Positions 23,211 through 26,028 of a stretch of 64,000 nt of DNA are shown piece after piece. Origin of the DNA: Thermoplasma acidophilum DSM 1728. Lineage in GTDB: Archaea; Thermoplasmatota; Thermoplasmata; Thermoplasmatales; Thermoplasmataceae. Below the pieces are notes generated by a model. That model made no database searches. It had not been told where the DNA came from and saw only the letters and a program-made list of their open reading frames with translations. Position 1 is the stretch's first letter, and every line of letters begins with the position of its first letter. The stretch covers positions 496,001-560,000 of the forward strand of contig NC_002578.1 in the NCBI RefSeq assembly GCF_000195915.1, in the 5' to 3' direction. The position numbers and the translations under genes were made by a program.

Positions 23211-23242
23211 TTTTAAATTCAATTCTGGCTTAATTCCCTGAT

Positions 23243-24472
23243 TTGAAACCGCAGATAAGGATCGCAGCACTTTTCGGTTCAGTGATATCCCTGTTTACTG
23301 CGGTGTATGTGTTCTTCGCCTATGTGGCACCGGATTACACCTTTCTAGTGTATATTAAGTCATACCTTCTGGTCATCGCTGCATCGACGAACGTTATATT
23401 CTATCTCCTGGTGATCGACACAGCCATTTTTGCCTACATATTCCTGTCATACAGAGAGTTCGCTGAGGTTAAAGGCAAGACAACTCCGGATATTGAGGAG
23501 AAGCCTGAAGGGAAAACGAAGCAGCAAAACAATGAGAAGGATCGGCAAGACCTGGTATTCAGGGAAATCAAGAAATGGCCGAGCCAGTTCGATTATGCAC
23601 AGGCCTTTCAGAATCCATCATACTCCCTATCAGGGGATCTGAGCGGCTATAAGATAATAAGGAATCCAAATGTTAAGATGGCCGGAAACACCATATATTC
23701 CTCAGGAAACTACGGTATAATATTCAAGCTTGAGAACGGCGGATCCTACTATGCTATAAAGTGCTTCACGAAGGGATCGGATCTTCACAGGCGATACTTC
23801 GAGATAGGCCGCCATCTTCAGGGGCGAAACGTGCCGTGCATGGTTCGCTTCGAATACATAGAGAACGGTGTGAGGACGATGAAGGATCCCACGACCTACT
23901 ATCCCGTGCTGAAGATGGACTGGGTCGACGGTGATTCCCTCTACACCTTTCTTAAGAAGAACATCGACAACGGAAAGGAGATAAGGAGGATCGCGGGAGA
24001 ATTCATGAATATGGTTCTGGATCTGAAGAGGAACAGGATGGCGCATGGGGATCTATCATGCGATAACATACTGATCAGCAACGGCAGGGTGATATTTGTG
24101 GATTATGACGGCATGTACGTGCCCGCCCTCAGGGACATGCCATCGAATGAAAACGGCCACGAGAATTTTCAGAGGCCTGACAGGAAGCCGGGCGATTTCT
24201 CGGAGAACATGGACGATTTCTCGGCACTCGTTATATACACCTCGCTGTATGTGCTATCGCTGAGGCCGGAGGCATGGAAGTTCAACGGTGACGATCCAGA
24301 CGCACTGCTGTTCAGGAAAGCGGACTTTCTGGATCCTGAAAAATCCGAGGTATTCGCATACATAAAGGCCATGGGCGGAAAGTCCTGGAGGCTTGCCTCA
24401 ATGATCATTAAATCTTTGAAATCGGATGGCGACGGAAGCATAGACCTCCGCAAGGCTATTTCAGCGAGATGA
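23243..24472 (+). CDS. Membrane-anchored protein kinase
   Basis: 409 residues. Two TM helices (about 7-30 and 46-70) are followed by a charged linker and a eukaryote-like kinase domain from about 135. The ATP-loop SSGNYGIIF, Lys173 (YAIKCF), Glu187, HGD 268-270 with Asn275 (HGDLSCDNIL) and Asp287 (VDYDG in place of DFG) are all in place, so it should be active. It faces a PP2C phosphatase gene whose 3' end overlaps its own by 17 nt, with a vWA gene beyond: a kinase-phosphatase-vWA triad. TTG start. Confidence 0.87.
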   Translation: MKPQIRIAALFGSVISLFTAVYVFFAYVAPDYTFLVYIKSYLLVIAASTNVIFYLLVIDTAIFAYIFLSYREFAEVKGKTTPDIEEKPEGKTKQQNNEKDRQDLVFREIKKWPSQFDYAQAFQNPSYSLSGDLSGYKIIRNPNVKMAGNTIYSSGNYGIIFKLENGGSYYAIKCFTKGSDLHRRYFEIGRHLQGRNVPCMVRFEYIENGVRTMKDPTTYYPVLKMDWVDGDSLYTFLKKNIDNGKEIRRIAGEFMNMVLDLKRNRMAHGDLSCDNILISNGRVIFVDYDGMYVPALRDMPSNENGHENFQRPDRKPGDFSENMDDFSALVIYTSLYVLSLRPEAWKFNGDDPDALLFRKADFLDPEKSEVFAYIKAMGGKSWRLASMIIKSLKSDGDGSIDLRKAISAR

Positions 24473-25151
24473 TCGCGAAGGTAACGTCATCATTCTTCAT
24501 CTCGCCGGAATTTATCAGGCTCCCTATGAATTCTCCCTCGTTCTCGGAATGATCGATAAGGATCTGCCACGGCCTCTGCTTTGCCCTGCTGAGCATCCAG
24601 TGGGCGAGCGAATCGGTTGCCATTATCAGAAGATCGCTTTCCGATATCCTGCCCTCCATGTAGTTTGCCCATTTTATGGATCGCCTGGTGCGCAGGAGGG
24701 GATTGCCCGTCCAGATTAGCTTTGGGGTATTCCCAAACTCAGACGGATATTTGACCGGAAAGCTCTTCATGCCCTCCGGCGTGATTATGAAGAGGCAGGT
24801 ATCACCAACGGCAACGGATCTGAAAGATCCGTCCAGAACCTCAAGGCCCAGAAAGGTGGCCATCGATCCCCTGGCGATCTTGTTCTTCACGAACCATTTC
24901 ATGTTGTTCCATGGGAGCTTTGATCTCCACATGCCGACGGCAGTTTCCACCATGTCGTCTATCTTCATGTCATATTTTCCAGCCACAAATGTGTCGACAA
25001 GGGATCTGGCCCATTCATTGGAAAAAACGGATTCCGAAGATCCATCCGCCATTGCAAACAGGCCCTTCTCAACGTCATAGGAGAAAGCGTCCTCATATTC
25101 GCTCTCGCTGTTCCCGATCTTGGGCTGATGATAGTGGAATACGCTTATCAT
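24456..25151 (-). CDS. PP2C-type protein phosphatase
   Basis: A 231-residue PP2C catalytic domain with no extra domains. Metal-binding and fold motifs are present in order: EDAFSYD (first Asp), FAMADGSSE (Asp-Gly), GDTCLFII, LLIMATDSLAHWML (Asp) and NDDVTFAII (final Asp). It most likely reverses phosphorylation by the kinase encoded opposite it, with which it overlaps by 17 nt tail to tail. It follows the vWA gene by 4 nt and is co-transcribed with it. Confidence 0.88.
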   Translation of the reverse strand: MISVFHYHQPKIGNSESEYEDAFSYDVEKGLFAMADGSSESVFSNEWARSLVDTFVAGKYDMKIDDMVETAVGMWRSKLPWNNMKWFVKNKIARGSMATFLGLEVLDGSFRSVAVGDTCLFIITPEGMKSFPVKYPSEFGNTPKLIWTGNPLLRTRRSIKWANYMEGRISESDLLIMATDSLAHWMLSRAKQRPWQILIDHSENEGEFIGSLINSGEMKNDDVTFAIISLK

Positions 25152-25155
25152 CCGT

Positions 25156-25989
25156 TCATTCCATCGAGCTTATTGCGCCCCTTGTTCCTATGTCTATGAA
25201 CTCTATCATCTGTTCAAGCTGTGCGTTGAAAACGTAGGACCTGGAACCATCCCTTATGTCTGGAAATGTCTCTATGGCGTAATTGATGTACTTGGTTGGA
25301 AGCACGCTGGACATCTTGAACAGGGATCTTGCATACATATCATTGGGTAGCTGATTCTCGGAATACGGAAATGACAGCGGGGCAGAGTTTTCTGTAGAAA
25401 CGTGACAGTTCCATATGAGCGGGTTTCCGTCTTCAGTTTCCATCTCCATTATGGACTGGGCCACGGGATACGGATCGCCATCCGTTGACTGGCCATCGGT
25501 TATATTTATCAGTATCGGGGGATAAGAGGAGGGATGTTCGTCGATCCATCTCTCAATGGCCTCCTTGGCCATGTTCATCGCCCTCACCATGGGCGTGTCG
25601 CTGTTGGCCACTGGCTCGAACCAGACTCCAAACTCATACTCCACATCAACGGTTCCGCCCGATCCGTCAGGTACCTTCATCATTCTCTTTTCTGTCCTGA
25701 GGGGATTCTCCGCGAGCCTGGAAACCGGGACAACTTCACCATCAAGCAGATAAGATGCCCTTCCCTTTTCTCCTCCATATCCTATAACGCCAACATAGAA
25801 ATAATCACGGACACCGTCATTCTTAGTGCACCTCATTATGAGTTCCCCTATCTGCCTGTTGATGGCATCCGCCGCTTCCTTCGCCTTTGATTCGCTACCG
25901 CCTGCCATCTTCCTTATCATCGACCTGGACTGATCGATCAGAAATATGAAGAGGCCCGGATTCCTCCTGCTTATCTCCGCGTCATACAT
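25156..25989 (-). CDS. von Willebrand factor A domain protein, TerY-like
   Basis: 277 residues, essentially one vWA domain. The metal-ion-dependent adhesion site is complete: DQSRS (D-x-S-x-S) near residue 19, a Thr in SDTPMVRAM, and the Asp in NITDGQSTDGD. No signal peptide or TM helix, so cytosolic. Small vWA proteins encoded with a PP2C phosphatase and a kinase are the TerY-P triad of tellurite/stress-response loci in bacteria; here the phosphatase follows by 4 nt. The start region is internally repeated (see 25980-26014). Confidence 0.87.
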   Translation of the reverse strand: MYDAEISRRNPGLFIFLIDQSRSMIRKMAGGSESKAKEAADAINRQIGELIMRCTKNDGVRDYFYVGVIGYGGEKGRASYLLDGEVVPVSRLAENPLRTEKRMMKVPDGSGGTVDVEYEFGVWFEPVANSDTPMVRAMNMAKEAIERWIDEHPSSYPPILINITDGQSTDGDPYPVAQSIMEMETEDGNPLIWNCHVSTENSAPLSFPYSENQLPNDMYARSLFKMSSVLPTKYINYAIETFPDIRDGSRSYVFNAQLEQMIEFIDIGTRGAISSME

Positions 25990-26014
25990 TAGTATAAATA
26001 AACGTCATACATTA
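25980..26014 (-). repeat. Duplicated promoter/start segment of the vWA gene
   Basis: The 12-mer CGTCATACATTA (plus strand) occurs at 25980-25991 and 26003-26014, 23 bp apart. On the minus strand each copy reads TAATGTATGACG, that is ATG-TAT-GAC, the vWA start. The upstream copy therefore opens a 7-codon frame, MYDVYLY, from 26012. Its TAA shares one base with the true ATG at 25989. A/T-rich TATA-like runs precede both copies. It looks like a short tandem duplication that made a leader peptide with stop-start coupling. Confidence 0.7.
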
Positions 26015-26028
26015 ATAAATATTTTGTT

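What the first reader, a model, noticed from the sequence alone, without database searches (positions are those of the whole stretch)
23243..25989. Kinase / PP2C phosphatase / vWA triad, an archaeal TerY-P-like signalling unit
Three adjacent genes encode a two-TM membrane kinase with complete catalytic residues, a PP2C phosphatase with all Asp motifs, and a small cytosolic vWA protein with a full MIDAS. vWA and PP2C genes are 4 nt apart; the kinase gene converges and overlaps PP2C by 17 nt. Bacterial stress loci carry the same triad (TerY-P), where the vWA protein is thought to be controlled by phosphorylation. Here the kinase is membrane bound and no Ter domain gene is adjacent, so this may be a stand-alone archaeal version with an unknown signal.
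Basis: partly seen in the sequence, partly recalled or inferred. Interest (0 to 1): 0.75.

Follow-up and report, generated by a model that had tools for sequence, protein, structure and literature searches.

The report
Archaeal TerY-P switch with rearranged kinase
A three-gene phosphorylation switch, known in bacteria as TerY-P and partly as a phage-defence system, is kept as a fixed unit across the Thermoplasma family of archaea, where its kinase gene is reversed and the kinase carries its extra module at the other end, here a membrane anchor.

Summary
The triad is real and at the stated coordinates: kinase (23243-24472 +), PP2C (24456-25151 -) and TerY-type vWA protein (25156-25989 -). They match PADLOC models STK_OB, PP2C and TerY (E 4e-57, 6e-29, 2e-89), so the TerY-P reading holds. 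All 40 recovered loci that keep a kinase gene share one layout: TerY and PP2C head-to-tail, kinase converging, with flanks that differ by genus and are mostly ordinary. The unit is self-contained and mainly vertically inherited. Corrections: lack of Ter genes is not distinctive, membrane anchoring is not only archaeal, and the alpha-C glutamate is not conserved. Activity and signal are untested. New variant of a known kind.

The parts
23243..24472 (+). Ser/Thr-type protein kinase of the TerY-P family, 409 aa, TTG start
   Evidence: PADLOC STK_OB 3.7e-57 over the kinase part only; Foldseek top hits are protein kinases, E 2e-10; TTG start kept in all five Thermoplasma genomes (and window sequence)
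23243..23464 (+). N-terminal TM hairpin (residues 1-74) of the kinase
   Evidence: hydropathy; AlphaFold helices 3-28 and 33-74; evolves fast, 57% identity against 90% for the kinase domain in the nearest relative
23465..23575 (+). flexible linker (residues 75-111)
   Evidence: pLDDT below 50 at residues 75-102; 32-45% identity within Thermoplasma
23576..24469 (+). kinase catalytic domain (residues 112-409), at the C-terminus of the protein
   Evidence: K173, H268-G-D270, N275, D287; confident AlphaFold model
24456..25151 (-). PP2C/PPM phosphatase, 231 aa
   Evidence: PADLOC PP2C 6e-29; Pfam PP2C_2 hits 10 of 15 aligned relatives, best 9e-9, although not this member; invariant Asp motifs
25156..25989 (-). 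TerY-type vWA protein, 277 aa, full MIDAS, most conserved part of the unit
   Evidence: PADLOC TerY 2.4e-89 over the full length; MIDAS invariant; 98% identity to the nearest relative, dN/dS about 0.008
24456..24472 (.). 17-nt tail-to-tail overlap of PP2C and kinase genes
   Evidence: overlaps of 7-23 nt or near-abutting ends (gaps of at most 12 nt) in all relatives with an intact kinase gene
23211..23218 (+). TATA-like box TTTTAAAT, 25-32 nt upstream of the kinase TTG
   Evidence: same motif and spacing in L032-L034, a similar TTAAATAT in L035; leaderless promoter is an inference
26015..26022 (-). TATA-like box ATATTTAT, 26-33 nt upstream of the TerY ATG
   Evidence: kept in the four other Thermoplasma genomes; leaderless promoter is an inference

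Best explanation
This is a stand-alone TerY-P unit: a reversible phosphorylation switch. A membrane-tethered Ser/Thr kinase and a soluble PP2C phosphatase set the phosphorylation state of the small cytosolic vWA protein TerY. TerY's MIDAS metal site then engages or releases a partner protein. The N-terminal module places or gates the kinase (a TM hairpin in Thermoplasma; multi-TM, PH-like or beta-rich domains in other genera), while TerY, PP2C and the catalytic domain form the constant core. Shown: the three families, intact key residues apart from the alpha-C Glu, fixed three-gene synteny, co-inheritance, clade-specific N-terminal modules, strong constraint on TerY. Inferred: that TerY is the kinase substrate, that the MIDAS output depends on phosphorylation, and that the N-terminal module is the input.
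For: PADLOC models STK_OB, PP2C and TerY all hit. Co-occurrence in 53-54 of 117 genomes with no convincing strays. Same gene order and convergent kinase in all 40 recovered loci that keep a kinase gene, with changing flanks. TerY tree gives one family clade, 100/99; the kinase tree gives the same groups and the PP2C tree nearly so. N-terminal module tracks clade. TerY is the slowest-evolving of the genes compared and the kinase N-terminus the fastest.
Against: No biochemical evidence that the kinase acts on TerY. The alpha-C Glu is not conserved, so activity is not certain. The PP2C of this genome has no Pfam hit of its own. The fast N-terminus could be an anchor without sensing function.
Confidence: 0.65

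Rival explanations
1. It is an antiviral defence system of Thermoplasmataceae, working as bacterial stand-alone TerY-P does: infection activates the kinase and the triad blocks virus growth.
For: Family models are those of the bacterial defence-type triad; bacterial TerY-P protects against T7-like phages and Autographiviridae (PMC7699616, PMC10889362; read); fast-evolving kinase N-terminus could reflect conflict.
Against: Presence is nearly constant within genera (Thermoplasma 5 of 5; g5 0 of 10; g2 0 of 3), unlike rapidly gained and lost defence systems. The neighbours examined are mostly housekeeping genes such as proteasome alpha, SBDS, thermopsin and radical SAM; the only PADLOC hits are generic UvrD helicase matches in one genus. 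No copies in 50,697 phage records or in viral contigs; plasmid copies only in two cyanobacteria.
Confidence: 0.3
2. It is a general kinase/phosphatase pair acting on other cell proteins, with TerY as scaffold or adaptor rather than substrate.
For: TerY is by far the most conserved member, with about 50 residues invariant from archaea to bacteria, far beyond the MIDAS, as expected for a protein with several partners; the kinase gene is transcribed separately (convergent).
Against: No evidence for other substrates; kinase and PP2C do not occur without TerY in the order apart from weak strays, which points to TerY as central.
Confidence: 0.25
3. The three genes are neighbours by chance.
For: The kinase lies on the opposite strand and has its own promoter-like box.
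Against: Fixed order in every recovered locus that keeps a kinase gene despite changing flanks; same three genes together in bacteria.
Confidence: 0.01

Closest known systems
Stand-alone antiphage TerY-P with STK-OB kinase (Gao et al. 2020, as described in PMC11090510 and PMC7699616; PADLOC PDLC02222-02224)
   Same: Same three protein families; TerY about 45-49% identical to proteobacterial members; no Ter genes needed; TerY and PP2C adjacent and co-directional.
   Different: Bacterial: all three genes on one strand, kinase domain N-terminal with a C-terminal extension of about 270-350 aa, named OB-fold in the PADLOC model, sometimes with a C-terminal TM. Archaeal: kinase gene convergent, kinase domain C-terminal, no C-terminal extension, N-terminal module variable.
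TerY-P triads with zinc-ribbon kinase in Ter loci and CoCoNuT systems (PMC11090510; H. pylori island PMC4978471)
   Same: TerY vWA, PP2C and STK triad.
   Different: The CoCoNuT-type kinases carry a C-terminal zinc ribbon and sit beside nuclease genes; here no CxxC motif in the window kinase and no such neighbours.
Minimal alphaproteobacterial triads (Magnetospirillum, Telmatospirillum and others; among L164-L183)
   Same: TerY with a kinase of the same family, PP2C-like gene between in several.
   Different: Kinase mostly about 320-340 aa with no added domain; co-directional; TerY 36-41% identical.

Membership tests
TerY-P triad | TerY-type vWA protein with complete MIDAS | tested here: met
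   PADLOC TerY 2.4e-89; D19, S21, S23, T132, D165 invariant
TerY-P triad | adjacent PP2C phosphatase with metal-binding Asp residues | tested here: met
   PADLOC PP2C 6e-29; invariant Asp columns and PP2C_2 in 10 of 15 relatives
TerY-P triad | adjacent Ser/Thr kinase of the TerY-P kinase family | tested here: met
   STK_OB 3.7e-57 over the kinase domain; kinase fold
STK-OB subtype of TerY-P | C-terminal extension (OB-fold) after the kinase domain | tested here: not met
   model matched only at 3-266 of 562; protein ends about 140 residues after the catalytic HGD, as in the intact family members
STK-OB subtype of TerY-P | three genes co-directional (seen in the bacterial loci examined; whether published definitions require it was not checked) | tested here: not met
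   kinase convergent in all 40 family loci that keep it, co-directional in the proteobacterial loci
Zinc-ribbon subtype of TerY-P | C-terminal zinc ribbon on the kinase | tested here: not met
   no CxxC motif in the window kinase
Ter-dependent stress loci | TerD/TerC-type genes next to the triad | tested here: not met
   nearest neighbours are MoaC, molybdopterin-binding/CinA-like, amino-acid-kinase and radical-SAM genes
TerY-P triad | kinase phosphorylates and PP2C dephosphorylates within the triad | not testable with these tools
   needs biochemistry
Antiphage TerY-P | protects against viruses | not testable with these tools
   needs a virus assay

The most novel reading that the evidence does not exclude
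In Thermoplasmataceae a TerY-P unit of bacterial type was rebuilt once (kinase gene reversed, C-terminal module lost, N-terminal module gained) and settled as a resident membrane-state switch, not phage defence; swapping the N-terminal module then adapted the same core to different inputs in each clade.
Probability: 0.35. Interest if true: 0.7.

Novelty: new variant of a known kind. Interest (0 to 1): 0.5.

Why it matters
What TerY-P senses and what TerY does are open questions. A family in which the core triad is constant while the kinase's extra module takes at least four forms gives a natural domain-swap series. It also offers a compact soluble core (kinase domain, PP2C, TerY) from thermophiles that should suit biochemistry and structure work, and it shows the triad kept apart from Ter genes and from defence islands.

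Tried and rejected
Pfam and NCBIfam alone did not settle the families: kinase and vWA fall below Pfam protein-kinase and VWA cut-offs and PP2C has no hit, so PADLOC and alignments were needed. No sequence relative of TerY is in the PDB. PP2C against the PDB gave only weak hits, the best E 0.05 to plant PP2C 57. Viral contigs and phage records gave no TerY relatives. dN/dS ratios beyond the nearest relative are unreliable because synonymous sites are saturated. Fisher tests on co-occurrence ignore phylogeny and are not used as evidence. The long-branched TerY copies of genome G448 cannot be placed in the tree. The founding papers on TerY-P (Anantharaman 2012; Gao 2020) were not held and could not be read, so what they say about archaea was not checked.

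Full report
Observation. The genome is a single 1,564,906-base contig with one copy of TerY and of the kinase. Its size suggests Thermoplasma acidophilum (from memory, an inference); its nearest relatives are named Thermoplasma.

Families. PADLOC gives STK_OB 3.7e-57 (kinase part only), PP2C 6.1e-29 and TerY 2.4e-89. These three models carry consecutive accessions and fit the stand-alone TerY-P system described in PMC11090510, PMC7699616 and PMC10889362. Pfam is weak for all three, so the identities were checked by alignment. MIDAS residues and PP2C Asp residues are invariant. The kinase has K173, HGD, N275 and D287, but no conserved alpha-C Glu, and DYD in place of DFG. The AlphaFold model has a TM hairpin, a disordered linker at 75-102 and a confident catalytic domain, whose best PDB matches are protein kinases.

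Conservation. In 117 genomes of the order, TerY is found in 54, PP2C in the same 54 (plus one weak stray), the kinase in 53 of them; the exception, G103, has only a fragment match. Among 41 neighbourhoods (window included) the order is TerY, PP2C, converging kinase in all 40 that keep a kinase gene; L036 is cut by a contig end, and the kinase in L056 (Thermogymnomonas draft) is broken. Kinase and PP2C 3' ends overlap by 7-23 nt or lie within 12 nt in relatives with an intact kinase. Flanks differ by genus. Those scanned are APH-like, formamidase, proteasome alpha, SBDS, thermopsin, HpcH/HpaI, radical SAM, a UvrD-type helicase with a PD-(D/E)XK domain, and two without Pfam hits. Only the UvrD-type gene hits PADLOC, through generic helicase models. 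Presence follows genus: all of Thermoplasma, g8 and g9; none in g2 and g5. In 390 genomes of the phylum, outside this family only G408 (same rearranged form, nested in the clade, so probably a transfer or a binning matter) and G448 have TerY.

Architecture. In the family the catalytic domain is always C-terminal. N-termini: 2 TM in Thermoplasma; about 4-7 hydrophobic segments in g8, g18 and G408; a soluble domain in g9, g11, g12, g13, g16 and g17; a short beta-rich region in g3, g4, g6, g7, g10 and g19. The soluble domain is modelled as seven strands and a helix (pLDDT 83.5) and matches PH-superfamily domains, for instance in GRK2, a TFIIH subunit and Lam6 (E 4e-5 to 2e-4); sequence support is weak (DUF7489 1e-4, GRAM 0.18). 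The beta-rich type is judged from sequence only. The TerY tree groups these types as clades, with starred support for the TM group (98/96) and PH-like group (100/99); the kinase tree agrees, with weak support for the TM group, and the PP2C tree nearly agrees.

Bacteria. Named loci in Proteobacteria (Simplicispira, Pseudomonas, Burkholderia and others) have TerY, PP2C and kinase on one strand, the kinase domain N-terminal and a long C-terminal extension; 5 of 11 have a C-terminal TM segment. A cyanobacterial plasmid copy is also co-directional. The archaeal form is therefore most simply a rearranged derivative, though the tree is unrooted and zinc-ribbon types were not sampled.

Selection. Against the nearest Thermoplasma, amino-acid identity is TerY 98%, PP2C 87%, kinase domain 90%, kinase N-terminus 49% (TM hairpin 57%, linker 32%); neighbouring genes 83-93%. 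TerY is the most constrained and the kinase N-terminus the least. TATA-like boxes at leaderless spacing stand before both transcription units.

Reading. The unit looks like a TerY-P switch with TerY as the conserved hub. Its genus-level stability, ordinary neighbours and absence from the searched virus and most plasmid records favour a resident regulatory role over a fast-turnover defence role, but do not exclude defence.

Noticed in passing
L119:7542-7871 (kinase N-terminus) and relatives among L120-L150: A predicted PH-like domain fused to an archaeal kinase, followed by a long Pro/Gln-rich linker; PH-superfamily domains on kinases recall eukaryotic GRK2.
   Followed up: partly
L130 / L056 / L101 (Thermogymnomonas acidicola): The kinase gene in this draft is split and PP2C also aligns in two pieces; may be draft errors or decay.
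   Followed up: no
L160:9740-12913: Thermotogae TerY-P kinase of 1057 aa with about 400 aa of 'GFDxxGxx' repeats before the kinase domain and a C-terminal region that looks like a formylglycine-generating-enzyme type domain (by eye).
   Followed up: no
L165:7974-15125: Chthonomonas locus with three tandem TerY-like ORFs and two kinase-like ORFs, recalling the duplicated vWA genes of CoCoNuT systems.
   Followed up: no
L164-L183: A minimal triad with a short kinase recurs in Rhodospirillaceae and magnetotactic genera.
   Followed up: no
window 25980-26012: The 10-mer ATGTATGACG at the TerY start is repeated just upstream, opening a tiny reading frame; the repeat is also present in three relatives.
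   Followed up: no
L062:350-1081: Genome G074 has a second PP2C-like gene about 7 kb from the triad, 25% identical.
   Followed up: no
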